55,206 nt of DNA from a virus: positions 1 to 55,206 of IMG/VR virus record IMGVR_UViG_3300013131_001394; one strand, given 5' to 3'. The translations under genes and the position numbers were made by a program. Shown here one piece after another: positions 1,939-38,400 of this stretch. The stretch's first letter is position 1. Every line of letters begins with the position of its first letter. The notes below the pieces were generated by a model. The model saw only the letters and a program-made list of their open reading frames with translations, did no database searches and was not told where the DNA came from.

Positions 1939-2300
1939 TAGTAAGAAATATTATAGGAGGCTCACATACCAGCGTAACAGGTTCAACTGCCTCAGATATA
2001 TACATTAATCCTAACGGAGGACCCATGGCAGGGTCAGTTCGTTACGTTAATAGCAATTTCGAAGTATATGACGGTAGTATGTGGAGAACAATAGGTAGTA
2101 GTTATGTTTCCGTTAACCTAAACGAAAATGCTATTAAGGCTATAGACTGGGTATTCAAAAAGATGGAAGAGGAAAACAGTATTCAAGAAATTGCCAGAAC
2201 GCGACCTGCTGTTAGTGCAGCCTACGAAAATTACATACGTGCAAGTGACCAACTTAAAACCACAATTATATTGAGTAATGATGAGCAATCCGCCAGTTAA
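1935..2300 (+). CDS. Conserved phage protein with fibre-like N-terminal module
   Basis: 121 residues, function unknown. The N-terminal half (residues about 1-55) has the pattern PMAGSVRYVNSNFEVYDGSMW, a short module common in phage fibre and structural proteins. The C-terminal half is helical and charged (NENAIKAIDWVFKKMEEE, then a segment ending in ILSNDEQ), a pattern I associate with small conserved proteins of T4-like cyanophages. It overlaps gp45 by 4 nt and dpdA by 23 nt. It could be a minor structural protein expressed with the replication genes, but nothing here proves that. Confidence 0.75.
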   Translation: MIVRNIIGGSHTSVTGSTASDIYINPNGGPMAGSVRYVNSNFEVYDGSMWRTIGSSYVSVNLNENAIKAIDWVFKKMEEENSIQEIARTRPAVSAAYENYIRASDQLKTTIILSNDEQSAS

Positions 2301-3828
2301 CCTTTCACCCTTACAAAGAGATTACGCTGTATTTTTACCAGCCTTAAGCAGTTTTTACAGCACCTATGTCAGTAAACAACAGCATGAAGAATTTGTACCT
2401 AAAGACAGAATCCCACAAGGGTTTGATCGTGGTATAGAAGGAATGAATTTCCTTAATCCTGAGCAAGGATATTTTACATACAAGTACGGACTGTTCTCCG
2501 CAGGCCATGCTCAACTAGATCTTAATAAAAGTGCTACACAAGAATCAATGGTACAACGTCGAAATCGTGCTAATACAATGATACTAGGAGATTCGGGAGG
2601 ATACCAGATAGGTAAAGGTGTTCTAAAGTTTGACTGGTTAGATTTTGAAGGACCTAAAGCAAATAAAGTAAGACATAGTATATTAGAATGGCTAGAACAT
2701 ACAGCCGACTGGTCTATGATGTTAGACGTTCCTACCTGGGCATGTGATCATGTACACAGTCCTAAGACAGGTCTTAAAACTTTTCAAGATTGCTTAGATA
2801 AAACTAAATTTAATAACAAATATTTTTTAGATAACAGATTAGGAAAGACAAAATTCTTAAATGTATTACAAGGAAGTGACTGGGAAACTGCCGAAGAATG
2901 GTATAACGGTGTCAAAGAATTTAGCGACCTTTCAGGAGAATATGCAGGCAGAGAAGCAGAAGGATGGGCATTCGGAGGCGCTAATATGTGTAAGATGGAC
3001 GTTACACTAAAACGTCTAATTACTTTACGCGAAGACGGCCTGTTAAAAGGAAAAAACTGGATTCACTTCTTAGGTACTGCTCAATTAGACTGGGCTTGTT
3101 TTTTAACCAGTATTCAACGACAACTTAGAAAGCATATTAATGAAGAAATTACCTTATCTTTTGACTGCGCCTCACCGTTTATCGCAACAGCAAACGGACT
3201 TGTCTACACGAACGCTCAACACACCACAAAGCGTTGGGCTGTTATTATGGACAAAGCCCCAGATCTTAAAGCCCTCGCAGGAAAAGACTTTCCTTTCCCT
3301 TTCGAAAGCGAAATAGGTAGAAGACTTACTGTAGGTGACATATGCCATTATGCACCGGGCATGTTAAATAAAATTGGCAAAGAAGGCAAAACTTCATGGG
3401 ATAGTTTTAGTTATGCTCTAATGATGGGCCATAATGTATACTGCCATATTGTTGCTGTGCAACGTGCTAATCAATTAATGGACATAGAAATAACTAAGTC
3501 GCAACCTAACTGGAAATTCTGGAAAAAAGTTAAAGCGGACGATAAGAGCGATGAGTATAGTGACTGGGTTCCTAGAAATGTGTTATACTTCGATAGGTTT
3601 GTAAAAGAACTTTTTGAAACTAAAACAAAACAAGAAGCATTCGATATGATAGATCAAGCAAAAGCATTTTTACTCAGTATGGAAGGTGCTAGAGCAGGCG
3701 GGTGGGCTGCTGAAAACACCTTTAATAAAATCTTTACCGTGGAAAATATAACTAAGTCTACAGAAATAGACCTAGAAAATCCAGAAGATCCTGAATTACG
3801 TAAACTGGAAGATTCACTTAATGCATAA
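2278..3828 (+). CDS. dpdA: DpdA-like DNA 7-deazaguanine transglycosylase (TGT superfamily)
   Basis: Probable DNA-guanine transglycosylase that exchanges guanine in phage DNA for a 7-deazaguanine base, protecting it from restriction. Seen: the DSGGYQ motif (Asp105) equivalent to the substrate-binding Asp of tRNA-guanine transglycosylases; an LNVLQGSDWETAEEW segment matching the V-Q-G region; an FGGANMC segment matching the family's IGG loop; and SFDCASPF (about Asp296), matching the FDCV nucleophile motif. A C-terminal GHN helix corresponds to the LHN of TGTs. The CxCxxC zinc motif of tRNA TGTs is not apparent; a C-H...H-N...C-H cluster stands in its place. ATG codons at 2278 and 2281 are both possible. 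The gene overlaps both neighbours. DNA rather than tRNA as substrate is inferred from phage context and length (516 residues). Confidence 0.85.
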   Translation: MMSNPPVNLSPLQRDYAVFLPALSSFYSTYVSKQQHEEFVPKDRIPQGFDRGIEGMNFLNPEQGYFTYKYGLFSAGHAQLDLNKSATQESMVQRRNRANTMILGDSGGYQIGKGVLKFDWLDFEGPKANKVRHSILEWLEHTADWSMMLDVPTWACDHVHSPKTGLKTFQDCLDKTKFNNKYFLDNRLGKTKFLNVLQGSDWETAEEWYNGVKEFSDLSGEYAGREAEGWAFGGANMCKMDVTLKRLITLREDGLLKGKNWIHFLGTAQLDWACFLTSIQRQLRKHINEEITLSFDCASPFIATANGLVYTNAQHTTKRWAVIMDKAPDLKALAGKDFPFPFESEIGRRLTVGDICHYAPGMLNKIGKEGKTSWDSFSYALMMGHNVYCHIVAVQRANQLMDIEITKSQPNWKFWKKVKADDKSDEYSDWVPRNVLYFDRFVKELFETKTKQEAFDMIDQAKAFLLSMEGARAGGWAAENTFNKIFTVENITKSTEIDLENPEDPELRKLEDSLNA

Positions 3829-7045: not shown

Positions 7046-7276
7046 ATGGCACTATCTGCTAGTATTCAAAAAACCCTTCGTTTCAAACCAGAAGTTCACA
7101 AAATCTTCGATGATCTAGAAGCATGGCACGATCATTGCAGGTTTGAACTGATGGACTTTAATCCTGCCCATCTTTACAAATCTAGAGAGTGGAAAGAGTT
7201 TAACAAAACTAGGGAGTATCTAGAGCGTAAAGCAAGACGCGAGTCTAAACAAAACAAAAAGAGCCATAATGGCTAA
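7046..7276 (+). CDS. Small conserved phage protein
   Basis: 76 residues, charged, probably helical (HKIFDDLEAWHDHCRFELMD, then EYLERKARRESKQNKK). No family recognised. It sits in the run from the 6408 promoter and overlaps the next gene by 8 nt. The basic C-terminus might bind nucleic acid, but there is no specific evidence. Confidence 0.7.
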   Translation: MALSASIQKTLRFKPEVHKIFDDLEAWHDHCRFELMDFNPAHLYKSREWKEFNKTREYLERKARRESKQNKKSHNG

Positions 7277-8339
7277 AATCTTTCTAGTAGACTTAGAAAG
7301 TGTAGAGACCAGATATACAGGACAATGGAAAAGTCATGTTCCCGAAATTCTCAAGACTAAAGGACATGAGGTTCACGTTATCTCTGGTCCTACGGATATT
7401 CCTAGTGCCACTACTCCTGGCGCTTTTCTCAACTTTGGTGGCACTAACATATATAAGTCTAGTCAAGTTGAACAGATGGGCAGATTATTTTGCCAGGGAT
7501 CCGTTAAACCTGGCGACCATTTTATTTTTACTGATGCTTGGCATCCGGGGATCATAAACTTAAAATATATGAGTGAACTATTACAGACGCCTGTAAAAAT
7601 TCACGCATTATGGCATGCCGGATCATATGATCCTCAAGACTTTTTGGGTAGGCTTATTGGAGATGCTCCGTGGGTAAGACACGCTGAGAAAAGTTTCTTT
7701 CACGCTATAGATCATAACTACTTTGCCACTAACTTCCACATTAATATGTTCGGTAAGAACTTGTTAGGCAAAGGCGGATACGATCCATCAGCTAATATAA
7801 CTAACAAAGTTGTAAGATCTGGATGGCCAATGGAATATATGGAGTATACATTATCTCCATATAAGGGTATGAAGAAACGTGACCTAATTTTATTTCCACA
7901 TCGTATAGCACCAGAGAAGCAAGTTGAGATATTTAGAGATTTGGCATTACTACTTCCTCAATATGAGTTTGTAGTATGTCAAGATAACGCACTAACCAAA
8001 CATGAATACCATACCTTACTAGGACAATCTAAAATGGTGTTCTCAGCTAATCTACAGGAAACACTAGGTATTAGTTGTTATGAGGGTGCCCTAGTAAATG
8101 CTATTCCTTTTGTTCCAGACAGGCTAAGTTATACTGAGATGTATTACGAACAGTTCAAATATCCTAGCGAATGGACTCAACACTGGGATTTATATCTTGT
8201 CCATCGTTCAGATATTTGCTATACTATCATTACTATGATGAATAACTACGAGAAACACGTTCATTATATAAGTAAACAAGCACAAGATTTAACTGAACAT
8301 TTTTTTTCCGCTAACCAACTATTCGATAACCTAAACTAG
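7269..8339 (+). CDS. Putative GT-B type glycosyltransferase
   Basis: 356 residues with a two-domain layout like GT-B glycosyltransferases. The N-terminal half starts with a strand (KIFLVDLESVE) and an ILKTKGHEVHVISG segment. The C-terminal half has RDLILFPHRIAPEKQVEIFRDL, the usual start of the donor-binding domain, and an ETLGISCYEGALVNAIPFVP stretch equivalent to the E-x(7)-E sugar-nucleotide motif region. Acceptor unknown: hypermodified DNA, host envelope glycan and virion protein are all possible. It overlaps the preceding gene by 8 nt. Confidence 0.7.
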   Translation: MAKIFLVDLESVETRYTGQWKSHVPEILKTKGHEVHVISGPTDIPSATTPGAFLNFGGTNIYKSSQVEQMGRLFCQGSVKPGDHFIFTDAWHPGIINLKYMSELLQTPVKIHALWHAGSYDPQDFLGRLIGDAPWVRHAEKSFFHAIDHNYFATNFHINMFGKNLLGKGGYDPSANITNKVVRSGWPMEYMEYTLSPYKGMKKRDLILFPHRIAPEKQVEIFRDLALLLPQYEFVVCQDNALTKHEYHTLLGQSKMVFSANLQETLGISCYEGALVNAIPFVPDRLSYTEMYYEQFKYPSEWTQHWDLYLVHRSDICYTIITMMNNYEKHVHYISKQAQDLTEHFFSANQLFDNLN

Positions 8340-8348
8340 GAGTTCACT

Positions 8349-10385
8349 ATGAAACTCAAAACACTTGCAACTTGTATAGCATTGGCCTATGGTTCCCTTC
8401 ATGCACAAGTACAAACTGGAGCATGGCTAACTACTGAATATGATAGAGGTAGAACTTTAAGTTCTATTAATGCTGCAACGGCATATTCCAGAGGATTTAC
8501 CGGTAAAGGTAGCACTATTGCTATTATTGATTCAGGCATTGATTTAAAATCACCAGAATTTCAAAATAGAATTAAGGCTGTATTTGATTTTACCAGTTCC
8601 GGATCTGCTAACGATACATTAGGTCATGGCACCCATGTTGCTGGTATTGCTGCTGCTGCAAAAAATAATATAGGAACTCATGGCGTAGCCTTTAATGCAG
8701 ACTTGCTAATTGCAAAGGTTACCACAAGCGGATTAGTTACAATGGCTACAGCAAACAAAGCTGTCGCTTGGGCTAATAGTTATAATGCAGATGTAGCTAA
8801 TCTAAGTTTAGGCTTTAGCCTTAAGCAATCTACAATTGCAGCTCAGTTAGTAAGCCCAGGTGTTTACAAAACAAATGTAACTAACACAGGAAAATATCTA
8901 GGTGGACTAGACGTTAATAGTTGGAAAACTGCTACTAACGGTGAAATGGTATTAGTTGTTGCCGCAGGTAATGATTCTACACCATGGTCAAGTTCGTTGA
9001 GTCAACTTGCAACTGCTGTTGATGCGAATGGTAACCTAATGTTGGGTGGTAGAGTAATTGTTGCAGGAAACTGGAACAGTCAAGGTGTAAGAAAAACTAC
9101 TACGGTTAATGGTAGACCTGTTTTTACTACTGCATATCAAACAGGTCCTAATAATAATGGTGCTGCCCAACTATGTATGGTAATGGTAGGCACAGTGTGT
9201 CAAGACAAATTTAAGGTTAGTGATTTTTACCTACTCGCACCTGGAACTGGTATAACAAGCACTTATCCTACTACTATTAACAAAAACGGTATGTTGACGT
9301 TAACAGGCACTAGCCAGGCTGCTCCAGCTATATCAGGTGCTGCTGCTATCATTAGAGAAATGTGGCCACAAATGACTGGGTCTAATGTTGTTAAGTTATT
9401 ATTAGTTACAGCAAATAAAAACATAGAAGGTTATAATGTTGTGGCACATGGTCAAGGACTTTTAGATCTTGATAGAGCAACCAGACCGGTAGGTAGTCTA
9501 GGTATTCCTACAACTGGAAGATTGTCAGGGCCACGTAGTCAATCTGTCGATCCTATATTGGTTACAGGTGGTTCCGCTAGCACAGGTGGACTGGGTAGTA
9601 TCGTTGTTTTAGATGACTTTGATAGAGATTTTGGGGTTAAAGGTAAAACATTCACAGCGCACAAGATTAGTAAGGAATTCAACCCTAAACAAGCATTTAT
9701 GCCATATGAATCAAAAAACAACTACAGTCTTTTCAATAACTATAATCAAAGATTACATGCAGAAGCAGCGGATATTTCTTTGGCAGTTTACCAAGACACA
9801 AATTCTGCTTTACAGGTGCCTGGTATGATTGAGATGTCTTATAAGGTAAAAGACTTTAAGTTTACTACAGCACATTTTACTGAACAGGCAACATGGCTTA
9901 ATAACAGCCTGCTAGGTATGAATAGAGAAAGCAATACATTAGTATTCGGCCTAGCCTATGAAAAAGATGTAGGTTCAAATACAAAAACATTCATTAGTGC
10001 CATGCATGGAACCACTAGTATTAAATCGTATAGCGATAAAGTTTCAGGGTTGAATACTGCTTACAGTTATAGTTGGAACGCAGGGCTTGAGCACAGTTTA
10101 AATAAAACAAACTCAATAGGCTTTATGGCATATCAGCCAGTGACTGTTTATAACGCACAGGCCAATGTTAATATGCCTGTAGGACTAGATCAAAACTTTA
10201 ATGTTATTCAAGGTACTAGAGCGAATCTAGCGGCAGATGTTAAAGAAACAAGGCTAGGGCTTTATTATAAACTTAGCGAAAAGTACACACAAGCAAGTGC
10301 ATTTATTGAAACAAGGCAAAATTACAGAGGACAAGATGGCATTAGAGACCACGCAGCAGGACTACAATTTACCCGTCAATTTTGA
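8349..10385 (+). CDS. Secreted subtilisin-like (S8) protease with probable C-terminal beta-barrel (autotransporter-like)
   Basis: 678 residues. The N-terminus is a Sec signal peptide (Lys2, Lys4, hydrophobic core, likely cut after SLHA, residue 19). The subtilase domain has the full triad: Asp61 in AIIDSGID, His93 in GHGTHVAG and Ser322 in GTSQAAP; an AAGND oxyanion segment is also present. From about residue 450 the sequence changes to alternating hydrophobic/polar strands with many Tyr, Phe and Ser. It ends in AAGLQFTRQF, with the terminal Phe expected of an outer-membrane barrel. This is the architecture of subtilase autotransporters such as SphB1. TAGGAG precedes the ATG. Such a protein is unusual in a phage. 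Surface display on the infected cell is inferred; host origin of the gene is likely but untested. Confidence 0.88.
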   Translation: MKLKTLATCIALAYGSLHAQVQTGAWLTTEYDRGRTLSSINAATAYSRGFTGKGSTIAIIDSGIDLKSPEFQNRIKAVFDFTSSGSANDTLGHGTHVAGIAAAAKNNIGTHGVAFNADLLIAKVTTSGLVTMATANKAVAWANSYNADVANLSLGFSLKQSTIAAQLVSPGVYKTNVTNTGKYLGGLDVNSWKTATNGEMVLVVAAGNDSTPWSSSLSQLATAVDANGNLMLGGRVIVAGNWNSQGVRKTTTVNGRPVFTTAYQTGPNNNGAAQLCMVMVGTVCQDKFKVSDFYLLAPGTGITSTYPTTINKNGMLTLTGTSQAAPAISGAAAIIREMWPQMTGSNVVKLLLVTANKNIEGYNVVAHGQGLLDLDRATRPVGSLGIPTTGRLSGPRSQSVDPILVTGGSASTGGLGSIVVLDDFDRDFGVKGKTFTAHKISKEFNPKQAFMPYESKNNYSLFNNYNQRLHAEAADISLAVYQDTNSALQVPGMIEMSYKVKDFKFTTAHFTEQATWLNNSLLGMNRESNTLVFGLAYEKDVGSNTKTFISAMHGTTSIKSYSDKVSGLNTAYSYSWNAGLEHSLNKTNSIGFMAYQPVTVYNAQANVNMPVGLDQNFNVIQGTRANLAADVKETRLGLYYKLSEKYTQASAFIETRQNYRGQDGIRDHAAGLQFTRQF

Positions 10386-10614
10386 TTATGATACAGAATG
10401 GCCCATGTCAGATTATTATGATGACGGTCCTATTACCATCGATGATCCTATTGTAGAATATAAAACTTTTGAACAGGTAAGTTGGTGGAAACTTAAACAA
10501 ATGTTAGAACGGTGGCCTGCTATGCATAAAAGTTGGCAGGCATTTATTATTGACTATAATGTATGCTTGGCTACCTTAAGAGCCGAGGAACAACACGATG
10601 ACATCCCTTTCTAA
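10336..10614 (+). CDS. Small acidic hypothetical protein
   Basis: 92 residues from the ATG at 10336, preferred because AGAGGA lies just upstream; an earlier ATG at 10297 has no such site. The N-terminal half is acidic and Tyr/Asp-rich (DYDTEWPMSDYYDDGP), followed by a helix with Trp (WWKLKQMLERWPAMHKSWQA). No family recognised. It overlaps the protease by 50 nt and the cupin gene by 17 nt, so it is translated in the same unit. Confidence 0.65.
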   Translation: MALETTQQDYNLPVNFDYDTEWPMSDYYDDGPITIDDPIVEYKTFEQVSWWKLKQMLERWPAMHKSWQAFIIDYNVCLATLRAEEQHDDIPF

Positions 10615-11071
10615 ATTTTTTCTTAACACTCTAGAACGCATGGGTAGGAAACGTATTGTTCTAGATAGAGAAAGTTCAGAACCTTATCTAGAACGTTATT
10701 ATGTCTTTTTAAAAGATAGAGATACATTTCCTTTTAATATCTTCATTCATAAATTTTTAAAATCAGATCCAGATGATGTCCACGATCATCCCTGGTCTTA
10801 TGCTACACTTATTCTCAAAGGCGGATACTGGGAATTCGTTCCTGTATTCAACGAACAAGGAGAAAAAGTTGCAGAAACAAAACATTGGCGGGCACCTGGT
10901 CATTTTCGTATTAGTCCTGCTACTAGTTTTCATCGTATCGAACTAGAGCCTAACGTAGACTGCTGGACTATGTTTATGCCAGGACCTAAGCGTAAGGAGT
11001 GGGGCTTCCTTGTAAATAACGAGTGGATTCATAACGAACAATACTTAGAGGAGAGACGAAATGCCGCGTAA
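10598..11071 (+). CDS. Cupin-fold protein
   Basis: 157 residues. The DDVHDHPWSYATLILKGGYW stretch is a cupin motif 1 with metal-binding His residues (HDHPW), and FRISPATSFHRIEL supplies the second-motif His. This places it among small single-domain cupins. The reaction cannot be told from sequence: cysteine dioxygenase-like, sugar-isomerase-like or binding roles all use this fold. It ends in GPKRKEWGFL, a tail I associate with phage-borne cupins. It overlaps the next gene by 11 nt. Confidence 0.72.
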   Translation: MTSLSKFFLNTLERMGRKRIVLDRESSEPYLERYYVFLKDRDTFPFNIFIHKFLKSDPDDVHDHPWSYATLILKGGYWEFVPVFNEQGEKVAETKHWRAPGHFRISPATSFHRIELEPNVDCWTMFMPGPKRKEWGFLVNNEWIHNEQYLEERRNAA

Positions 11072-12672: not shown

Positions 12673-13521
12673 ATGAGTAAACTTAAAGTATCAGAATTGT
12701 TTTACAGTGTGCAGGGCGAAGGTCGCTATATGGGCGTTCCCAGCATCTTCCTTCGCGTGTTCGGTTGTAATTTTACCTGCGATGGTTTTGGAATGCCTAG
12801 AGGAGAAAAAACTAATGAACGAAACATTATTGCAGATCGTATTGGAGAGTTTAAGCAGTATAAAGATTTACCACTTGTTCATTCCGGTTGCGATTCTTAC
12901 GCTAGTTGGGATCCTAGGTTCAAAGACTTTTCACCAGTATTGGAAACAGACTCAATTGCGAAAACAATTAGTGAACTTCTTCCAAAGAAAGAGTGGGACA
13001 GGGAACACCTAGTTATTACAGGCGGTGAACCTTTGTTAGGTTGGCAACGCAGTTATCCAGATCTACTGGAACACGAAAAAATGAAGGGTTTGAAAGAAAT
13101 CACTTTCGAAACCAACGGCACTCAGAAATTGAGTAAAGAATTCAAACATTATTTAGGTGAGTGGACTGCTACTAATTGGGATAGAGAGATTACCTTTAGT
13201 GTTAGTGCTAAATTACCTAGTTCAGGTGAAGCATGGGAAGAGGCTATTCAACCCGACGTAGTATGCGAATATGAACAAGTCGGTTGGACATATCTTAAAC
13301 TAGTTGTAGCCACAGAGCAGGATATAGAAGATGCACTACGGGCTATAGAAGAATATAGATCAGCAGGCTTTAAAGGTGAAGTATACTTGATGCCGGTAGG
13401 TGGTGTAGAGAGTGTTTATAGTTTAAATAATAAGAATGTAGCATTAGCCTGTATGAAGCATGGGCTAAGATATAGTGATAGGCTTCAGGTGCCGCTCTTT
13501 AAGAACGCTTGGAATACATAA
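12673..13521 (+). CDS. queE: QueE-like 7-carboxy-7-deazaguanine synthase (radical SAM)
   Basis: 282 residues. QueE converts 6-carboxytetrahydropterin to 7-carboxy-7-deazaguanine, the first deazapurine of the queuosine/archaeosine and DNA 7-deazaguanine pathways. The start SELFYSVQGEGRYMGVPSIF is characteristic, and VITGGEPLLGW is the SAM-binding GGEP motif. The cluster loop is unusual: Cys32-x3-Cys36 is followed by 36 residues (including PRGEKTNE) before Cys73 in GCDSYASW, whereas canonical QueE has CxxxCxxC with CDTxYAW directly after. I recognise this form from T4-like cyanophages. It would supply precursor for the DpdA homologue at 2278. QueC, QueD proper and FolE are not seen in the window. 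Confidence 0.88.
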   Translation: MSKLKVSELFYSVQGEGRYMGVPSIFLRVFGCNFTCDGFGMPRGEKTNERNIIADRIGEFKQYKDLPLVHSGCDSYASWDPRFKDFSPVLETDSIAKTISELLPKKEWDREHLVITGGEPLLGWQRSYPDLLEHEKMKGLKEITFETNGTQKLSKEFKHYLGEWTATNWDREITFSVSAKLPSSGEAWEEAIQPDVVCEYEQVGWTYLKLVVATEQDIEDALRAIEEYRSAGFKGEVYLMPVGGVESVYSLNNKNVALACMKHGLRYSDRLQVPLFKNAWNT

Positions 13522-19220: not shown

Positions 19221-20468
19221 ATGGCTGTTATGAAATCAGAAAAAACTAAAAAGGTAGAAGCACGTAATTTTACCGAAGCAGAAAAAAACAAAATTGTAGA
19301 GAAATTGATTACTGCTCGTGTTGGGTTGTTACTGCGTCATCCTTTCTTTGGAAACTTAGCAACTCGTCTTAAACTTGTAGATTCTACTCACTGGTGTCCT
19401 ACTCTGGCTACAGACGGACGCTGTTTCTACTACAATAACGATTTTGTAAACCGACTCACTCCAAAACAGGCAGAGTTCGGATTTGCACACGAAGTCCTAC
19501 ATAATGTTTTTGATCATATGGGGCGCCGTGATGGGCGTGATCCTATACTGAGTAATATTGCGGCAGACTATGCCGTTAACCAAATCCTAAAAGATGAGCG
19601 CATCGGTGAAGTGCCTGACTGGATCAAAATTTTCCAGGATAACAAGTATCGCGGAATGAGTTATGAAGAAATCTATGCAGACATTTATGAAAAATCCCAA
19701 AAAATCAACATTTGCGGGTTAGGCGAGTTGTTAGATGAGCATCTAGATGGAGACGGCGATGGAGACGGCGATGGAGACGGCGATGGCAATAACGGTAAAG
19801 GTCGTCCTAAACTTACTCCGGAAGAACGTAAGGCTATCCGTGATGAGATCAAAGAGGCTATGGTAGCCGCTGCCCAGAGTGCCGGTGCAGGCAAGGTTCC
19901 CGCAGGTGTAGCACGCCTTATTAAGGATTTCACAGAGCCTAAAATGGACTGGCGTCAACTACTGCGTATGAATATCCAAAGCATTATCAAAAGCAATTAT
20001 AGTTTCGCCCGCCCAAATCGTAAAAGCCAACACTGTGGCGCAGTCCTTCCAGGTATGTTAAATGAAGAAACCATTGACGTAGCCGTAGGTATTGACCTAA
20101 GTGGTAGTATTAGTGACGACATGGCCAAAGACTTCATTAGTGAAGTTAAAGGTATAATGGAAGAATACAAAGACTTCAAACTTGACTTATGGTGTTTTGA
20201 TACCGAAGTGTATAACTACGCCGCATTTTCAATGGATAATGCAGATGAAATCATGTCCTACCAAGTTAAAGGCGGAGGAGGTACTGACTTTGAGGCCAAT
20301 TGGACCTTTATGAAAGAGCAAGGAATTGAACCAAAACGCTTTATTATGTTTACAGATGGATATCCTTGTGGCAGTTGGGGGGACGAAGATTACTGCGAAA
20401 CCCTGTTTGTTATTCACGGCAATGAATCCATAATTGCTCCGTTCGGACAGACTGCCTACTATAAATAA
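19221..20468 (+). CDS. VWA-domain protein with metallopeptidase-like N-terminus (DUF2201 type)
   Basis: 415 residues. The N-terminal domain has an HExxH zinc motif (His90-Glu91-x2-His94, with His99 nearby) as in the putative metallopeptidase domain found with VWA domains. A DG-rich linker (about residues 176-189) is encoded by 12-bp tandem repeats. The C-terminal VWA domain has a MIDAS motif (GIDLSGSIS, Asp292) and FTDGYP at the later metal-binding loop. It is the expected partner of the upstream MoxR-like ATPase. The two are separated by a terminator and a new promoter rather than co-transcribed. Substrate unknown. Confidence 0.87.
   Translation: MAVMKSEKTKKVEARNFTEAEKNKIVEKLITARVGLLLRHPFFGNLATRLKLVDSTHWCPTLATDGRCFYYNNDFVNRLTPKQAEFGFAHEVLHNVFDHMGRRDGRDPILSNIAADYAVNQILKDERIGEVPDWIKIFQDNKYRGMSYEEIYADIYEKSQKINICGLGELLDEHLDGDGDGDGDGDGDGNNGKGRPKLTPEERKAIRDEIKEAMVAAAQSAGAGKVPAGVARLIKDFTEPKMDWRQLLRMNIQSIIKSNYSFARPNRKSQHCGAVLPGMLNEETIDVAVGIDLSGSISDDMAKDFISEVKGIMEEYKDFKLDLWCFDTEVYNYAAFSMDNADEIMSYQVKGGGGTDFEANWTFMKEQGIEPKRFIMFTDGYPCGSWGDEDYCETLFVIHGNESIIAPFGQTAYYK
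19746..19781 (+). repeat. 12-bp tandem repeat in the VWA gene
   Basis: Three exact copies of GATGGAGACGGC plus a partial fourth, in frame, encoding an Asp-Gly repeat in the linker between the protease-like and VWA domains. Copy-number change would alter linker length in steps of four residues. The acidic DG run could bind calcium. Confidence 0.9.
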
Positions 20469-26486: not shown

Positions 26487-29400
26487 TTATAGTTCCTCTA
26501 GCGGCTCATCGTCTTGATCTGTTAGGGCAAATCCTCCCTCATTAGTTAGGGCAACATCACCTCCATAGTAATACTTATCTGGTAATTCTGCAGGTCTTGC
26601 CTGTAAGAATCTAGCAGGTACAGTGGTACTGGTCATTAATGAATAGGTAGATGTCGAGTTAACTGTATCATTCCATACATCTATAGCATCAAATTCTCTT
26701 TTTACAATTACTAATTTAATGCTTTGTTGTACACCTTCTTGTAAATTTAAATTGAGATACTGGTTCTGTATAGTAAATTCTGGTGGTACATAATTAATAC
26801 CACTATACTCATACCCGTTAAATGCATCATACTTGTCTGAATTAGTATAAATCCAGACTTGATTAGTTGATGTAATTACATAGGCTGTGCCTAACACTGT
26901 GGTAGTAGGAAGATATGATACTTCGGCTAACCATCTATTATTCCTTGCTTCTTGTGAATTTTTAATATTATTAAGGATTTCGGTATCTGTATCAATTAGG
27001 TTATTATAGTTACCTACCCAATAATCTAACCCTCCTTGATCGGGATATCTATTTAAATATCTCAGATAATAATTTGTAACTGTATTTGCATATGATGCAG
27101 GATCTGGTACTGTGGGTGATAACGGTGCACCATAATCGGGCGCATTGGGTATAGGCAAGAAATAAGGTGTGTCGTAGGTGAATTCTATATCCTGTTTGAA
27201 AGTGGCATTTTTATTTAAAATACGTCCACCATAAACTACTGTAACTTGATCCTCTAACTTTATAGGATTAGGTATAGAAGTCGTTGTACTAATTTCGTTT
27301 AGTGTAATACCATCATTAGTTACAGTGCTATATGATACAGGATTACCTAAATAATCAGTCGCTAGCGTAGATGTAGTAAATGACAATGTACTAATATAAT
27401 AAGTTGTGCTATTAGCCAGTGTATAGTGTGTCTGTTTTAATATTCTTTCAGAATACGGTACTGTTTGTTGCGATCCTTGATCAATAACTTTGGTATTCTC
27501 ATGCGAATAAAAACTAGGAGCAGTTCCTAAAGTTGCTCTCCTTAACTGACTTAACACATTAGATCCTACTTTGAAAAACTCAATACGTTCACCGTCTACA
27601 AGAATTACGCCAGGAAGATTCTTTTCAATATCCGGACTGGTCAACACATCTGCATTGTCAACATGTATTTCTGTATCATATACACTTAGTGGTCTGGTTA
27701 GATATGTAGAATTTTCCTTACTTAATCTCTTAAAATGTGTTCTATGGAAAATATCATGGAATATTCTATAACCTAATATAGTTGATGCTAATTTTTCGCT
27801 ACTAAATGTTATAATTGTAATCTCATTAGTTTCATTATGATAGAATTCATCTGAAATTTCTACTGTTACAGAATCATCTAATATCTCATAATCATAATGA
27901 TTTACTAAAGGTATACCGTCAACTATTACCCATACATAATTGCTATCAAGGGCAGGTCTACTTATCACATATCTTCTAGACGGATTACCACGGAATCGCT
28001 CTGTACGCATCAGCATATCGTCGTGATTATTGTAGGTTATAACTTTCAATTCATAAGGGTATGTAAACGATCCTGGATTTATGATTGTCAATTGACTACC
28101 AACAATATCATAATCGTATGTATATGAACCTTCCTGCGCTACAGCAGCAATTGCTATCACATCATCCTTAACTAATGGAACTAAAATATTATATGTATTA
28201 GCACCTGCTGCACTGTAATCAAAACCTCTCCTTAATTCTTTTCCATTTAGGTACACTCTAACCTGACTTAATGATCCGTAATTTACACCAGTTGTATTAA
28301 GTGTGTAAGCGGTAACTAAAGAATTTATAACTTTAAAATAACTTATATCAGGAGGTCTTAGGTATCTACGGGTACCGTTTTGGTTAACTTCAACAATTGT
28401 CTGTGCTACAACAGGTTCTATTATTCCCGGAGGATTCGCCAATGTCCAAGATGTTTCCGAAACATTTGTAACTTCTATAATTTCTTCATTTATTTCATTA
28501 AAATATCTTTGTGCTGTACCGAAAAACCATGCTGTAACGGTAGAAGTAGTAGTATCTACCAAATTATATACATTAACAGCAGCCCTGTTACTATTTTGAT
28601 TGGCCACAGTAAGCATGTATCCGTAATCAGTTGTAGTGGTAACTTCACTTATCGCAATGCCATTAACAGTAACATATGCACTCTTAACTGTACCAAATTG
28701 CGCAAGACTTACTAATTGAACTGTGCTTGTGCTACCTGTAAAACTTGTGGTATCTATAACACCTGCTTCTTTAAAGTCTCTACCGCCTCCTACACTAACA
28801 ATACTCACTCCTAATATACCTTTTATGGTTTGAGGAGGAACAATTATTTCATTCAATGTCCAATTAATGTTAAACTCGGTACTGGTTGTAAAATTAGTTG
28901 TAGAGTTATAGGTCATTAACCTGTTTTCAAAAGTTACCACTAGGCTGGAACTATTAGGAGGAGTAATACTTAATTGTCTGGTACTAGTTGATCCGGGGTA
29001 GATAACATAATAACTATTAACTACCACAGGCGCACCTTCAGGATGCTTGGTATAAACATTGATACCTACGCTTTGATTAATTTCACCTGGAACTAATTCT
29101 TCTGGAGCATAAGTGTGATTGGCACTGATAAATGACTCTCCATCTATAGTAATATCTTCAGGATTTATTCCTAGGGCTGCTACTCTTGTTCCAGTCGTCC
29201 AGCCGCCACCTTCTATAGCACTGTCTAAAATAGTAGTCTGTGTATCATATGACCAAAACTCTATACTAGCGATGCTAGTAGTATTTGTATATGTTCCTTC
29301 TACGAAAATAGTAGATATTGTAGCAGTTAACGGTAATAGGGTAGCAGTTGTAAATGTCACAGTACGAGCACTAGTGTTAACAGATTGAACTCGCGGATTA

Positions 29401-32400
29401 ATATTAAAAAATTGATTATCTAATTGCTGTCTGCTGGCACTAACTATGTTAACAAGTTGCCCAGGTTTTATACCCGTAGTGGTAGTTAATGTAAGCGTCG
29501 TGGTTCCTGAACTAGCAGTATTTGCGACTTCAATGTTTGTGTAAAATGCTATATCGTCGGCCCAGTAACTAATACCATAAGCACTAGTAGTTTCATTTCC
29601 TATGCGCTGGTCTGTTAGCCAGTTAATACCCCACTTAGTTGTGTAATTAAAAGGAAGACCTTCTACCACAGTCTTAGGAAACTCTATGCCATCCATTAAT
29701 TGTGACAATTCGTTTCCTGGCATACCGTCTGTAGGGCTATAGTATTCTAAAATACGATCAACGGCATTTAATAACGCAACATTCTTTTTATAATTTACCG
29801 TTAAAACTTGATTAGTCTTAGGCACATAGTTAATGAATATTATTTTATTATATGTCTTTTGATAATCAGTATTCGCACCTATATAATCTTTATAATAAGA
29901 AACAGTGTAGTCTGAACTTAGTACCAGTTGCCCGTCTAAAGTGATTTGAATTTGTGACTTATCAGGAACTGCAATCCATGATAATATGAATTCAGTATCT
30001 GCACCGTTACATAAAAATCTATCCTCAGTATCAATATCAAGAACTTCAGGTGCTCTAGAAGTTCTATCAAATTTCATACCTAAGGTAATTTCTCTTACGG
30101 TATCATTCGTCAATACTGCATAGCCTGTGGCTACCTTTGTAGGAGAACCTCCTCCTGATATTACAACTAACGGAGGCGTTGTATATCCAGATCCGTAGTT
30201 TGTAACTTCAAATCCTACTACAGATCCTGATCTAATAAATGCCTTAGCGGTAGCACCAGATCCTAAATCACCAGTCTGTGTAACTAGCGTTACTGTAGGT
30301 GTTTCTGTGTATCCTGTCCCCGGATCGGCTACTCTAATTTCTCCTACATAATATGTATAATTGTCAAGCCAAGATTTCCATGGGTACGTCAACATCCATG
30401 TATTAGTAGCAGTGAACTCAGAGGCAGACTGACTAGCCGGTATTGTTAAAGTATTAAATCCGTTTTTAGCATCATCATAATAAGGTGGAAAATCAAAATC
30501 TGTAATATAAGTGGCACTAGGTTCTACTTGATTATACCTTGTTGTAAAGTTTCTTATTTGAGTATGATACGGTTTAACTTCCTTGATATATGATTCATAA
30601 TATTCACTGTTTTGCAATTTATAGGTAGATCTTTGATCTAACGATCCTGCATTATTTGTTACATTAATAAAAGATGTTTTAAACGCCCAGTCCAGACGTT
30701 TTTGCTCTGTAAGAGCATATTTAACTGCCTGGAAAAATAATAAATTGTAATGTACTTTTAGATCATTAACAAAAAGATCTTCTTTTACTGCTTGTAGAAT
30801 ATTGTATGTTTCTTGATAAATTTCCGCAGACTCATCATTCCAGACTGTATCTTTAATTTTTATTGTACCGTTTTCACTATATACAATATTGTATCCTAGA
30901 CTAAATGTTCCTAAAATATTATCACTTATTTTTTCAAGAATTACATAGTTACCTTGCCCGTTATCATTTATCTTGACATACTGTCCTTGAGATATATCCT
31001 CTATCGTTTTTAACTGATATATTTCATCAAGAGTATATGCATAATCCACAAACTTGTTGTATGTCGAATCCAACCAATCAATATAATCCCAGTAAAGAGT
31101 TGTGTTATAAGATTGAGTTTCAGACAGTTCCCAGCCTAGAGTATACCCCTTATACTCGTACCTTGACCATTTACCATCTTGCGTACTATCTACTTCTACA
31201 ACTGCTGCAAAAGGTCTTACCGATAAACTAGGAGCACTAGCAAACCCAGACCCTGCATTTAAAATAATCACATCAATAACTTTTCCGTTAGCATCAATAA
31301 CAGTTTTTAATTCTGCACCGTTGTTATTATTCACTGTGATTAAGGGCGCATTAATATACCCATCTCCTGGTTCAATTATTGTTACACCAGTAATTTTACC
31401 GTTAGAAACAGAACAACTAATCTGTGCCTGTACTTTAGAATTAATATCAATAAAGTCTAACCCTTCTAGATCTTCTAGAATTATATCATATAATCCATCA
31501 GAGACATGAGGTATAGGCTCTTTAGATAGTAAATTTCGTAGACTATATTGTTCTGTTATACGCTGTGAGGATAAGACAGAGTTGATATATTCAACAACGT
31601 TGCGTAGGGCAATAAACCTATCTGCAAACAATGTTTGTCTAGGTCTAATACTAATACCATAACGTTCTCTAGCAGTAAGTGCAGGATCAGGAACCGGATT
31701 GCCTAAACTATCCCTTCCAAGCAAACTATCAAACAACTTTTTCTCTAACATCGCATTAGGCATCTGATTGGCAGATCCTTCTTGCATAAGTAACCACTCA
31801 GTATGTCGAGGTATGGGGTTGTTAATTATATCAGTTGCTATATTTAGGCTTATTCTATCATCTATTAACAGTGTACCTACGTTGGCAAGCGACAATGCAT
31901 TTTGATCCATTATTTGTCCGAACCTTAGTCCGTAAGCCGCAGGGTTTTCTATTATACTTGCCAATTGAACTGCTGTAGTTCTTCTGTTCTTTTTATTAGG
32001 TAGTATTATTCGATTCTTTACCCAGAAATAATAGACATTTGTAAATCCGCCTGTGGTAGGATTATAAACCTGCTTAACACTAAGCACATCATTCAAAGGA
32101 TGTTTAGGCTGTCCGCTTATCCCGTCCGCAAGTCCTTGAGACGTATCTGCTATAACTGCCCACTCACTAGGTAATAATTCGCTACCTACCCATTCGTAAA
32201 TGTCAATTGTGGAACCGGGAAATAATCTACCCCAATTATTTTTCCTATAACTTAGTTCGCCTTGCTCATACCATACGTATTTTGCATTGCTAGTATCCCA
32301 CCATATTTCACCGACATGATCATCTAACCAATTTGTTTCAGCATCAGTAACGGTTAATTCATTGCCTATAGAATAAACAGCAGGGTCTATATTAGACTTA

Positions 32401-35400
32401 TATTTTATATCTTCTTCGGCAACACCGGGTATTTTACCTTTTAAAGGGTCTATAATATCAAGATGTTCTAAAACTTCATCATTAAATGTATCATACAATG
32501 TTAATTTTTGTATGGTATTAATATCAACTAGTTGATCTTTACTACGTAAAATGTTCCAACTTTTATCTGCTACATTTTTCTTTCTGTATTGATAAAATGC
32601 ACTGTCTGGTAAGATACCGTCTATTACAGTTTTATATGCAGGTGCACCTACATATATAGAATCATCATTTACTGCTAGGCTAAATCCGTAATTAGTTCCT
32701 GTATTAGGATCTAATAAACTCATTTCATCTGCTAACTTAAACGTGTTCAAATACCTATTATAGACGTATGCACTTCCACTAAACTTAACAGTATCAAAAA
32801 ATGTTGTCGAGCCTGAATCAAATGTTGTACTATCGGTTAAATCACTATTAACATCTTTTACATATTTTGTTCCGTATATACTTAATGAATTTAACAAAAG
32901 TGATTCATATCTATCAAAAGTTAATTGTAAGTTTCTATTTGTACCTTGTGCTGTGACAACAAGTTCAGTATTATCTGAATTAATTCCTATTGCCTTACCG
33001 AATTTCATACCGGGACTACCGACAGGGTTTTGTATTATCGAATCTAATTCAAAATGTACAGCATCAGTTAATGTATTTTTATAAACTGCTACCTTACCGA
33101 ATGATTGATCATAGTTTCTAGAATCGGGTGCTCCTACAAAAATATACTGCCCATCTTTACTAACTGCAACTGACTCTCCAAACTTAGCATTACGTTCAAA
33201 CGGACTAGTTAAAGTTTGCAGATATGTGATATCGGTAGTGGTATACACACTAACAAAACCTGTACCTGTGTAATATCCAGGAGCCGCAACAGCAGTAACT
33301 TCGGCCAGATTAGATCCTTGTATAACTTGACCCCATCGTGATCCTACATTTACATCAAAGGGCGCTGTGATCTGTTTAACATAAGTCACATTTATCTGAG
33401 TAGAGGCTGTGGTAAAATTATAAACATAAACAGATCCTGTACCTAGTGTAGATGTAAAGGGAGCGCCTATCATTAAAACCTGTGTAGATCCGGTAGACAA
33501 ATTACTTGTATAAATGCTAGAACCAAATCTTTCATAACTTGCAGGTGTAGGACTTATTAGAGCACCTTGACTAACTTCTGTACCTGTGCCTTCAAACGTA
33601 CTAATTTTTACCAAACCTTCTTCTAACCTTGCGCTGTAAGAACCTGTATTCCCGGCAAAACGTAAACCACCGGATGAATATGACTCTCTAGTAAAACTTA
33701 CTAAAGGAGCACCTGCAAAAACGGTGCCGAATGAAGAAGTACCAAGTTGATTTGTGTGATAGGCTAACCCTTGTCCGAAATTAGTGTATCCTCCGGGCTG
33801 ATAATATGTTGTAACAAGATTATTAACCGTCCAACTGGAAATTAATTCAATGTCTGTATCCGATTCATGAAATAAAAATACAGTTCCGGTATTTGTTCCT
33901 GTACCGGAAGCACTTACAACAAAATTTCCTAAATTATCTTTACCGGTTATTTTATAGCCTAATTGTGTAGTAGTGTTAACGCTAACAGTGTTTAGACCTT
34001 GACTATTATAGTTTTTGATCTTTGCTACAACTTGCCAGTTATCTGCTCCGTCATCTATCAACCAATTCTTAGCACCGTATGGTAATTTTAATAAGAAATT
34101 ATCCCTAGGTAACTTATCAAAATTATCAAACTTAGCACTTTGAAACTTGAAAACAAGTCCCTGAGTTTCAGCAGTAAGACCTGAAAAGAAGAATGTAGAA
34201 GTGGTGCTTATTACAAAAGTGTTAATTGTAGGTACCTCTACAACTTGATAAACTCCGTTAACTGTATCACTAAATTGACTAATACTAACAATATCGAACT
34301 TAGAAATGTTATGTGCTTTTGTCGTTTTAAAGATATATCTGTCTGTAGAACCTTCCTGTAAAGTTATGCTACTTAACTTGGAACTACCTAATACATACCT
34401 AAAAACATCCCAGTCATTATTATTTTTATTAGCAATCCAGACATAGTCATCGATTAACAAACTTCTGTTATTGCTAATATCGGTGATAGAATTTGTATTG
34501 TAAGCAGTGTAATCTACATCGTCAAATCTTACGAAACCTGCCGTTTCTAATTTTAATATGTCTGGGTCATTAGTTGTGATAAAAGTGCTCGACGATATAT
34601 AGCCATCATAACTTATTAATAAATCAGTCTGTGTTGTATAATAAATTAGACTTTTATTATCGATTTCAATTTCTTCATTAAATGTTACAATTTGCGGATT
34701 ATCAACAAATTCGCCTTCTTTTAACTTAACCTCGAGTTCTTTATATGTCTCAAACGAACCGAAGTGTCCTATTCTAAATGCCCATTCTTCATTGTAACTA
34801 ATTTCACCTTGTAGATTATGAATAGCAGCCTTGGCTAATTTTTCAATAGCATTACGTGTACCTTTTTCTCTAATAAACCCTTGATAGAATTTGTATTGAG
34901 CAATAGGATTGGTAAAGATATTATTAAGATATGGACGAGGAGTATAACCTACCAGATGCTGAGCCATTCTTTGTTGGGCAGAATCAAAATTGTCAATGTC
35001 TAAACTATAGAAATCTTCAAACTGATTAATCTTATAGTCAAAATTAGGTAATAATTGTGCCACAGGCTTTTCGCCTAACAATACCCATTCAGTAAATGTA
35101 AACTTATCCGAACCTATAATATTATTTTTAGCAGTGTAATATTTTCCGTTAAATCTAACAACATCACTGGCATTGTAATTTGTGAACTTTTGCCAGTCAT
35201 TAATATATGCGGTGTCATAGACGAATCCAGGGCTAAAATAATCACCGTCCCAATCTCTAGTTCTAAATCCTGTCAATCTTACCCTACGCTGTCTATATCC
35301 TGTAGCAGTATCATATATTGTATCATTGAAGATTGTTGTATTATTAAGTACTATAGCATGTTCTTTTTGAATACTGTTTAAGGTAGCAAAGTAAAGACCA

Positions 35401-38400
35401 TCTGCTAGATTCACAGTAGACACTGTGCATAGTCCATCTTCTCTATTAACATTAATGTTATTTTTAGGAATAGGAATCCCATTTGCCTGTAGTAAACTAT
35501 AGTCGTAAAAACTATTGAATATATTATCAACAACTGTATTAGGTAATTTAAACTTAAGTTTATCTGCAAAAGGACTGAGTGTTATTACATTATTGTTCGC
35601 CCAGTTCTGACTTACCCAGTACAAGAATTCTTCGCCTGTAAATGTCCAGTCAATTACACGCAGAAGGTCTGCATTATAATCATCAAATACAAATCCTCTT
35701 GTAGTTAACCATTGGCCGTACCCTATTATTATATCGTAGACCTCTTGAATTTTGTCAAACGTAGATCCATAAGGAATGATTTCTTCTTGCTTATTAAATC
35801 CGTTCCATTTTTGAACAGTAACTCCGCCCTTAATAGGTAAAGAAGGCATGCGTTGATAATAAGCATCTTCAAATTTGTTACCGCTTCTATGACGAGTCTT
35901 AACTCTATAAAAATTATTATCGTACTTTACTATTTGTCCTACTTCATAAAATATTCCGCCTGTAGAGACTGCGGCTGTGGTAATATCTCCTACTGCCGAA
36001 CTACTTGTAGGAGCATTTGAACTGGGTTTCCAGTCGACATACGGTTCACTTATACCTCCAACATTTATAGTAGGTGTATTAATATTTCTTCGAGGCCTAA
36101 ATATTGTAAAATAAGGATCTTTCTTATCATAACCTTTTAGAACAAATAAACCATTTTGTTTTTGTACAATAATACCGCTAATACTGTTAGTGCTTACAGG
36201 ATTACTTACATTTAGGATTAATTCAAAATCCTCAGGAGGAAGTATACTACCGGGACTTGTGCTTGTAGGATCTATCGCATCAATTACTACCTGAACCTTA
36301 TCCTTGCTAATAAAACCGCCAACTTTGTAAAATAAATTAAAATCAGCATAATCTAAATCTGACCTTAATTCTTTTATATAATTACTTGTTCGAGTTAAAC
36401 CTGCTTCTACAACATATACGCCGTATCCGCTCAATAAATTACTAGTTTCAGTGTGAACAAAAATATTTTTCAAACTTAAAAAGTCTAGTGTATCACCGTA
36501 TATTAATTGTCCTGCTAAATTTAAATTAATTCTATAAGGGTCATACATGTAAGAGCAATAGTGAACAGGGCTGCATAATGCCATAACCTTTTGAACTACA
36601 AAAGGCCAGTAACTACTTCTACGCCATGCTGCTTCAGCAGGTCCGATATCACCTACTTGCCAATCTTTACTTTTTTGCCCTAATTTAATATTTTCCAAAA
36701 TAATGTCAGGCTCAATTAAATTACCTTGACTATCAGACGGAACTACATTAAGCAACCCATCTCGTTTATATATTGTATCTACACCCTGTCGAGATCCTTG
36801 TCTAATTCTCCCATCAGCAAGATCTTCCCATAAAGGCAGATTTCCCGAAGTGTAGGGGGCAACTCCGTATTGACCTTCCCACCATGAGGGTTTTTCACTA
36901 AAACCTAACATCTCCCACGGATGACTGTGTGGCCTATCTGTTCCGTAAAGATATCTATATACAGCACGCCATGATCCTGTCAAATGTGTATCAATGCTAC
37001 TGATATAAGAACCAGTGTAGTTCCATGTAAAAGGATTGGCTTCATCGAAAGCACCATTAGTTTCACTGTCTATACCATAAAATCCTGCCCACCTTACAAA
37101 ATCCTTTGTAATAATCCTGTTAATGTCTACTGTATTAAAACTATTTGTTTTAAACGCACCTGGAATAAGTTCATTATAGTCTAAAAGATCCTGTCTGTAG
37201 GTAACTTTAATATTATTGTATACACGTTTTTCAAACTCTAAGATTATGTCATCTCTATAATCATCATAACTTCTTATGATGCTGCCATCATGACATTGTA
37301 TTACATAGACAGGATCTACATAAGTGTCATCAAGGTATAGTTCGGGATTATATTTAGGATATAATCCTAACTTAGTAGGAGTAGGTGGAACATATGATCC
37401 TACAGTAGACGTATATTCAACTGTCTTAAGAATATCACCTATGTTTAATGAAGTTAAAATTTGTATAGATGCATCATTAGTAACAAATTCATAATCTTTG
37501 CCAACAATTAACTGTGTATCATTAAGGTAAACTAATACACTTTTATCGGTAAGTGTATCCAATGTAAATTCATTATTGATAGGAAATTCAATATTAGCAG
37601 GGTTGGTTACAGTCCACTCACGCTCTTTCTTGTCCGGACCATATCCTACCATGTCTGAATAATAATATGAACTTAATAAATCTTTATCTGCATTTAATTC
37701 TTTAAGTATTTGATCAACTGCTTGTGCGGGCGTTAAATCATCAGCCATATCACCCGCTTTACGTAGGAAGGCTAACTTAAATTGATTATATTGATCAGCA
37801 GCCTTATCTAGTGCTGTAATAAGACTATGTTCTTTTTTACCTAAAAACATTAAACTGAAAGCGATAGGATTAAGATTTGATATTAATCTTTTTCCATGTG
37901 TTTCAATACTATCTATATCCCTTAAATTACTTTGTCCGGGAAAACTGCCTACAAATGCAGGACTACTTTCAGTCATGCTCTTTACATGATCACTTAGTTC
38001 AGTAAAGGTAAGTGTGCCGAACTTCTGATTTAAAGGATTGTTTGTCAATGCTAAAGGAGATTCCCAATGTCCCGCTGAACCTAATGAATTATAAGTGTGT
38101 ATTTTAACAAGTACATTAGATCCTGCTGAAATATCATTGTTAAATTGAACAATAACATTTCCGTTGGATTCAGATACACTATAAGTATCAGCCAAAATTT
38201 TAGCATTATTAACAAAAACTTCTATCACATAATCTGATAAAACAGGCTTAAATGATTCAAGTTTAATTATAGCAGTATCAACTTCTAGTGTTTTAAATTC
38301 AAGTATAGGTATGCTATATTCGTTAGCGACCTGCCATGCATTTTTATAAACATCACCATCTTCGTGTGCGTATTTTACAAATGCATTGCTTGTTTTTACA

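What the first reader, a model, noticed from the sequence alone, without database searches (positions are those of the whole stretch)
8349..10385. Phage-encoded subtilase autotransporter-like protein
A signal peptide, a complete Asp/His/Ser subtilase triad and a C-terminal region that looks like an outer-membrane barrel ending in Phe together form an autotransporter layout. Phages rarely carry such proteins. It could process host surface proteins, block superinfection, or help lysis or nutrient access, and it sits among early/accessory genes, not virion genes.
Basis: partly seen in the sequence, partly recalled or inferred. Interest (0 to 1): 0.75.

Follow-up and report, generated by a model that had tools for sequence, protein, structure and literature searches.

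The report
Phage-encoded outer-membrane-anchored subtilisin protease
This uncultivated phage, like at least a hundred other environmental virus contigs, carries a gene for an exported protein-cutting enzyme joined to a predicted barrel that would anchor it in the outer membrane of the infected bacterium, probably so that the virus can trim proteins on the surface of its host.

Summary
Window 8349-10385 (+) is an intact 678-aa gene with its own ribosome-binding site. It encodes a signal peptide, a complete S8 subtilase domain (D61/H93/N208/S322) and a C-terminal domain that AlphaFold2 models with twelve long strands ending in Phe. The model resembles outer-membrane barrels, including autotransporter translocators (NalP, EspP).

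I found no convincing barrel-bearing copy in 50,697 phage records, but one scan of uncultivated viral contigs found 112 relatives. The 51 viral rows examined form one family with an invariant catalytic set, under purifying selection. About half carry a plain signal peptide and half a lipobox.

In this phage lineage the gene sits in a variable cargo slot: nine close relatives have the same flanking genes abutting, with nothing between them.

By sequence the barrel is not the classical autotransporter domain (PF03797). It belongs to an unnamed domain also found on bacterial S8 proteases. I therefore call the protein autotransporter-like, not an autotransporter. The most likely role is a surface-displayed protease that cleaves exposed host proteins, with receptor removal or superinfection exclusion the leading candidate. 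Surface exposure and substrate are inferred, not shown.

The parts
8338..8342 (+). Shine-Dalgarno-like AGGAG, 6 bases before the ATG; overlaps the stop codon of the upstream glycosyltransferase-like gene
   Evidence: sequence
8349..8405 (+). signal peptide, residues 1-19 (MKLKTLATCIALAYGSLHA), likely signal peptidase I site LHA|Q; no lipobox
   Evidence: sequence; no signal-peptide predictor available
8406..9503 (+). Peptidase S8 (subtilase) domain, residues ~20-385
   Evidence: PF00082 E 2.3e-36; structural Z 38.9 to subtilisin, 267 residues, 1.7 A
8529..8531 (+). catalytic Asp61
   Evidence: invariant in 52 sequences
8625..8627 (+). catalytic His93
   Evidence: invariant in 52 sequences
8970..8972 (+). 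oxyanion-hole Asn208
   Evidence: invariant in 52 sequences; role from knowledge of subtilisins
9312..9314 (+). catalytic Ser322 (GTSQAAP)
   Evidence: invariant in 52 sequences
9504..9746 (+). linker region, residues ~386-466, including the conserved V-L-D-x-F-x-R-D-F motif
   Evidence: Asp/Arg/Asp of the motif invariant in 42 sequences
9747..10382 (+). predicted 12-stranded outer-membrane beta-barrel, residues ~467-678, C-terminal Phe
   Evidence: AlphaFold2 pLDDT 88, pTM 0.84; outer-membrane barrel matches
7269..8339 (+). left border of the cargo slot: glycosyltransferase-like gene (named from its sequence; no Pfam match)
   Evidence: conserved neighbour; abuts the cupin-like gene in 9 relatives that lack the protease
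10598..11071 (+). right border of the cargo slot: cupin / cysteine-dioxygenase-like gene
   Evidence: phrog_4786 E 1.8e-39; slot analysis

Best explanation
The gene makes a serine protease that the infected Gram-negative host exports through Sec. The C-terminal 12-stranded barrel is inserted in the outer membrane, presumably by the BAM machinery, and the subtilase domain is displayed on the cell surface in the manner of a subtilase autotransporter (NalP, SphB1, Ssp). There it cuts exposed host proteins. The likeliest benefit to the phage is change of the infected cell's surface: removing receptors so that rival phages cannot superinfect and newly released progeny do not stick to debris. Shown by sequence or model: export signal, intact conserved catalytic set, barrel fold, C-terminal aromatic residue, accessory cargo position, purifying selection. 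Inferred: BAM insertion, translocation of the protease domain to the outside, proteolytic activity, substrates and benefit.
For: S8 domain with invariant D/H/N/S and Z 38.9 to subtilisin; the Ssp autotransporter passenger also matches at Z 37.0. C-terminal model pLDDT 88 and pTM 0.84 with twelve long strands; its best matches are outer-membrane barrels, including NalP translocator Z 12.5 over 195 residues and EspP Z 12.3 over 214 residues. C-terminal Phe/Trp in 40 of 50 non-redundant viral relatives. Plain signal peptide in about half the relatives and lipobox in about half. All 80 barrel hits in a second viral scan also carry S8, so the two domains go together. Gene lies in a slot that is empty in nine close relatives. 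dN/dS about 0.11, like its neighbours. One copy in each of 10 virus records searched whole. Lipidated subtilase autotransporters NalP and SphB1 cleave surface proteins (PMC9977779).
Against: The barrel has no detectable sequence kinship with the classical autotransporter domain, and generic barrels (FapF, KdgM, COG4313) match as well as NalP does. No lumen-spanning linker helix is evident in the secondary structure of the model. With an even number of strands the protease domain could also stay in the periplasm. No isolated phage or host is known, and nothing here tests timing, activity or substrate.
Confidence: 0.5

Rival explanations
1. Periplasm-facing enzyme: the barrel only anchors the protease, which faces the periplasm and degrades envelope proteins during takeover or lysis.
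For: Sequence family differs from PF03797; fold matches include ordinary barrels; an even strand count puts the barrel's N-terminal edge on the periplasmic side by default.
Against: The NalP and EspP superpositions begin at model residues 8-11, inside the linker segment; known subtilase autotransporters act on the surface (PMC9977779).
Confidence: 0.2
2. Lysis or release aid: the protease loosens outer-membrane proteins or matrix at the end of infection so that progeny escape.
For: An exported, envelope-anchored protease would suit late release; the family is found in large phages (contigs up to 335 kb).
Against: Gene lies among replication and nucleotide-metabolism genes and no lysis cassette was recognised beside it; optional in close relatives.
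Confidence: 0.13
3. Nutrient or fitness cargo: the protease releases peptides for the host during a long infection.
For: The slot holds metabolic genes in other relatives (sugar-nucleotide dehydrogenase-like, FolE-like); bacterial homologues exist.
Against: A protease tied to one infected cell would share its product with neighbours; no uptake genes were seen beside it.
Confidence: 0.1
4. Virion component, for example a receptor-degrading enzyme on the particle.
For: One clade (L006, L038, L046, L062, L067, L072, L075, L078) has the gene beside a possible structural gene (my reading of the neighbour).
Against: Signal peptide or lipobox and a C-terminal barrel signature are features of cell-envelope proteins; in the window the virion genes are a separate minus-strand block.
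Confidence: 0.04

Closest known systems
Subtilase autotransporters NalP, SphB1, Ssp, EprS
   Same: Export signal, S8 protease domain at the N side, 12-stranded outer-membrane barrel at the C side; lipidation in NalP and SphB1 as in about half the viral family (PMC9977779)
   Different: Barrel has no detectable sequence kinship to PF03797; linker helix not evident; encoded by viruses; EprS family model scores 74 bits against a cut-off of 1700
Bacterial S8 proteases with the same unnamed C-terminal domain (Gammaproteobacteria and other Pseudomonadota, L087, L094-L102, L183-L192)
   Same: Same two-domain layout; C-terminal profile match probability 99.9%, E 6.3e-33; 13 of 274 genomes of the class of L087 carry the domain
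   Different: All but two fall outside the viral clade
BFVD A0A6J5TBB6, 'Peptidase S8/S53 domain containing protein' of an uncultured Caudovirales phage
   Same: Same barrel fold, Foldseek E 8.8e-15, TMq 0.70; protein of 689 aa
   Different: Known only by its database name; sequence not available here
Subtilases of Bacillus phages (SP-15, Goe3 and others)
   Same: S8 domain in phage genomes
   Different: Match the S8 domain only; hosts are Gram-positive; the C-terminal domain has no match in the phage collection
Phage-encoded outer-membrane proteins (for example Aeromonas phage phiAS5, cyanophage OMP-like)
   Same: Outer-membrane barrel encoded by a phage
   Different: No protease domain noted in their annotations

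Membership tests
Peptidase family S8 (subtilases) | PF00082 domain over the curated cut-off | tested here: met
   126 bits against 21.8, E 2.3e-36
Peptidase family S8 (subtilases) | Asp/His/Ser triad with oxyanion Asn | tested here: met
   D61, H93, N208, S322 invariant in 52 sequences
Peptidase family S8 (subtilases) | proteolytic activity | not testable with these tools
   needs the expressed protein
Classical (type Va) autotransporters | Autotransporter beta-domain PF03797 | tested here: not met
   no match for this protein; 1 of 42 relatives at E 0.0027; hhalign probability 1.3% against 13 PF03797 domains
Classical (type Va) autotransporters | N-terminal export signal | tested here: met
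   read from the sequence; signal peptide or lipobox pattern found by script in 42 of 50 relatives, and visible by eye in 6 more
Classical (type Va) autotransporters | 12-stranded C-terminal barrel | tested here: met
   twelve long strands counted from the DSSP string of the model; NalP Z 12.5, EspP Z 12.3.
Classical (type Va) autotransporters | linker helix through the barrel lumen | tested here: inconclusive
   superposition includes the linker segment but no long helix is predicted there
Classical (type Va) autotransporters | passenger displayed on or released from the surface | not testable with these tools
   needs accessibility assays
Lipidated subtilase autotransporters (NalP, SphB1) | lipobox at the signal peptide | tested here: not met
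   window protein has no lipobox; 21 of 50 viral relatives matched a lipobox pattern and 2 more show one by eye
EprS equivalogs (NF051851) | NCBIfam curated cut-off | tested here: not met
   74.2 bits against 1700

The most novel reading that the evidence does not exclude
A widespread family of large environmental phages displays its own protease on the infected cell and uses it as a receptor-destroying enzyme, comparable in role to the receptor-destroying enzymes of some animal viruses; the S8-barrel layout uses an export barrel that does not belong to the known autotransporter family.
Probability: 0.27. Interest if true: 0.85.

Novelty: new variant of a known kind. Interest (0 to 1): 0.62.

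Why it matters
It shows that many uncultivated, probably Gram-negative-infecting phages carry a protease built to sit in the outer membrane of the infected cell. No paper describing this was found in the searches made. If it acts on the surface, it would be a new way for a phage to remodel its host's exterior and exclude competitors, and it would add an autotransporter-like family to viruses. It is directly testable in a laboratory strain.

Tried and rejected
Genome-collection scan with A1 found nothing and with A3 only L087, so bacterial relatives were sought with a profile instead. Swapped passengers: every one of 80 barrel-bearing viral ORFs also has S8, so no other cargo on this barrel was found. 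T4-type late promoter: one TATAAATA in the window, against 11 expected by chance, and not near the gene, so timing is not inferred. Pseudomonas phage Y5 match: an UNVERIFIED, unannotated record whose stretch encodes an EprS-like autotransporter beside a molybdopterin oxidoreductase-like gene; judged likely bacterial DNA. Faecal scaffold MT835913 has only a weak C-terminal match and is also UNVERIFIED. PADLOC models (subtilase, IetS) match only through the S8 domain and a defence role was not pursued. Model coordinates are not exposed, so lumen occupancy of the linker and closure of the barrel could not be measured. About half of the PF03797, porin and OMP control loci gave no usable frame in my extraction, so the profile comparison used 13, 14 and 12 sequences. 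VIA-align and Foldseek give no confident family assignment for the barrel beyond outer-membrane barrel.

Full report
Observation. The ORF at 8349-10385 (+) is real: 678 aa, ATG start, AGGAG six bases upstream. The window is a 55,206-base virus record of a T4-like or jumbo-type myovirus: DNA polymerase, baseplate wedge and hub proteins, and SbcC/SbcD, with the closest SbcD relatives in PA5oct-like jumbo phages. The virion genes form a minus-strand block at about 22.7-49.6 kb; the protease gene lies on the plus strand among replication and nucleotide-metabolism genes.

Protease domain. PF00082 matches residues 52-370 at E 2.3e-36. The modelled domain superposes on subtilisins at Z 38.9 (267 residues, 1.7 A) and on the passenger of the Serratia autotransporter Ssp at Z 37.0. 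D61, H93, N208 and S322 are invariant in 52 aligned sequences. The S8 domain follows the signal peptide almost directly in this protein, leaving no room for a typical propeptide (sequence; inference).

C-terminal domain. No Pfam family matches it in this protein. AlphaFold2 with 42 aligned sequences gives pLDDT 88 and pTM 0.84, and the DSSP string shows twelve long strands: 78-84, 87-93, 102-111, 114-123, 135-151, 156-172, 176-194, 199-224, 230-237, 245-254, 258-268, 277-287. The Foldseek matches with the lowest E-values are outer-membrane proteins. VIA-align puts FapF (Z 13.1), KdgM (12.8), COG4313 (12.8), NanC (12.7), NalP translocator (12.5) and EspP (12.3) within a tie. So an outer-membrane barrel is well supported, but an autotransporter barrel specifically is not singled out. 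By sequence profile the domain is not detectably related to PF03797 (probability 1.3%) or porins (0.3%) and clearly related to the C-terminal domain of bacterial S8 proteases (99.9%, E 6.3e-33).

Family. A first scan gave two contigs at 75% identity. A five-sequence alignment then found 112 viral contig relatives, 80 retrieved; in each the matched frame is open, some being cut by a contig end. Of 50 non-redundant members, 40 end in Phe or Trp and 2 in Phe plus one residue; the 8 others are one clade with a short tail. Signal peptides: a script matched a plain type in 21 and a lipobox in 21; of the rest, four show a plain signal and two a lipobox by eye, one is truncated and one unclear. Each of ten virus records searched whole has one copy, including a 335-kb contig. 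In a tree of 71 sequences the 51 viral rows group together with two bacterial ones: L087, nested inside, and L094, near the base; 18 other bacterial rows lie outside (long bacterial branches, so the base is unsure). L087 lies on a contig with rfb-type genes and an Omp85-like gene (my reading of the ORFs), so it looks chromosomal, which suggests at least one transfer between phage and bacterium.

No convincing member was found among 50,697 phage records: the C-terminal domain has no match at E up to 1, and S8-only matches are mostly to Bacillus phages. The Pseudomonas phage Y5 record is UNVERIFIED and looks bacterial. A protein of this kind is already in the BFVD library under the name Peptidase S8/S53 domain containing protein.

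Position. Using the flap-exonuclease gene as an anchor, relatives of this phage lineage were fetched. In nine (L283, L291, L293, L294, L303, L304, L312, L314, L315) the glycosyltransferase-like and cupin-like genes abut; in L328 and L334, as in the window, the S8-barrel gene lies between them; others hold sugar-nucleotide-dehydrogenase-like, FolE-like, 2OG-oxygenase-like or membrane-protein genes there (names from my reading of the sequences). The gene is therefore optional cargo in a variable slot. Across the wider family the commonest neighbours are QueE-like, phosphoribosyltransferase-like, FolE-like, QueD-like and flap-exonuclease genes (names partly from my reading of sequences). dN/dS between the window and L001 is 0.11, with 0.08 for the S8 domain and 0.16 for the barrel, like the neighbouring genes (0.11-0.15); synonymous changes are near saturation in this pair, but closer pairs give 0.06-0.13.

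Function. The layout matches subtilase autotransporters, of which NalP and SphB1 are lipidated and cleave surface proteins (PMC9977779); autotransporter anatomy is taken from PMC3297439. A review of 224 jumbo phages does not contain the words subtilisin, subtilase or autotransporter (PMC7824862), and the paper searches made found no report of phage-encoded subtilase autotransporters (titles and abstracts read, not every paper). I favour surface display and cleavage of exposed host proteins, with receptor removal the likeliest benefit; export signal, catalytic set and barrel are shown by sequence or model, the rest is inferred.

Verdict. Observation confirmed; interpretation partly supported; a new, virus-borne variant of a known architecture; interest 0.62.

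Noticed in passing
window 7269-11071 and L283-L352: The interval between the glycosyltransferase-like and cupin-like genes is a variable cargo slot in this phage lineage: empty, S8-barrel, sugar-nucleotide dehydrogenase-like plus FolE-like, 2OG-oxygenase-like or Bax-inhibitor-like membrane protein.
   Followed up: partly
window 26487-40205 (-): A 4572-aa ORF takes up a quarter of the window inside the tail/baseplate block.
   Followed up: no
window 12673-13521; 2278-3828; family neighbours: QueE-like radical SAM gene here, with FolE-like and QueD-like neighbours in relatives, hints at 7-deazaguanine DNA modification; the gene at 2278-3828 looks like a tRNA-guanine transglycosylase relative by eye, with no Pfam or PHROG match.
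   Followed up: no
window 10405-10614 (+): Small ORF between the protease and the cupin-like gene, absent at that place in L001/L002; L334 has an ORF of similar size there, similarity not tested.
   Followed up: no
L087 4218-6989: A Gammaproteobacterial MAG contig with rfb-type genes and an Omp85-like gene carries an S8-barrel gene that nests inside the viral clade.
   Followed up: partly
L353 (OQ572407.1, Pseudomonas phage Y5): UNVERIFIED phage record contains an EprS-like autotransporter and a molybdopterin oxidoreductase-like gene; probably bacterial contamination.
   Followed up: partly
L006, L038, L046, L062, L067, L072, L075, L078: One clade of the family has about 60 residues after the barrel and lies near ClpA-like and Cu/Zn superoxide dismutase-like genes.
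   Followed up: no
window 20460-20467: TATAAATA occurs once in the window against 11 expected from shuffles: the T4 late-promoter motif seems to be avoided.
   Followed up: no
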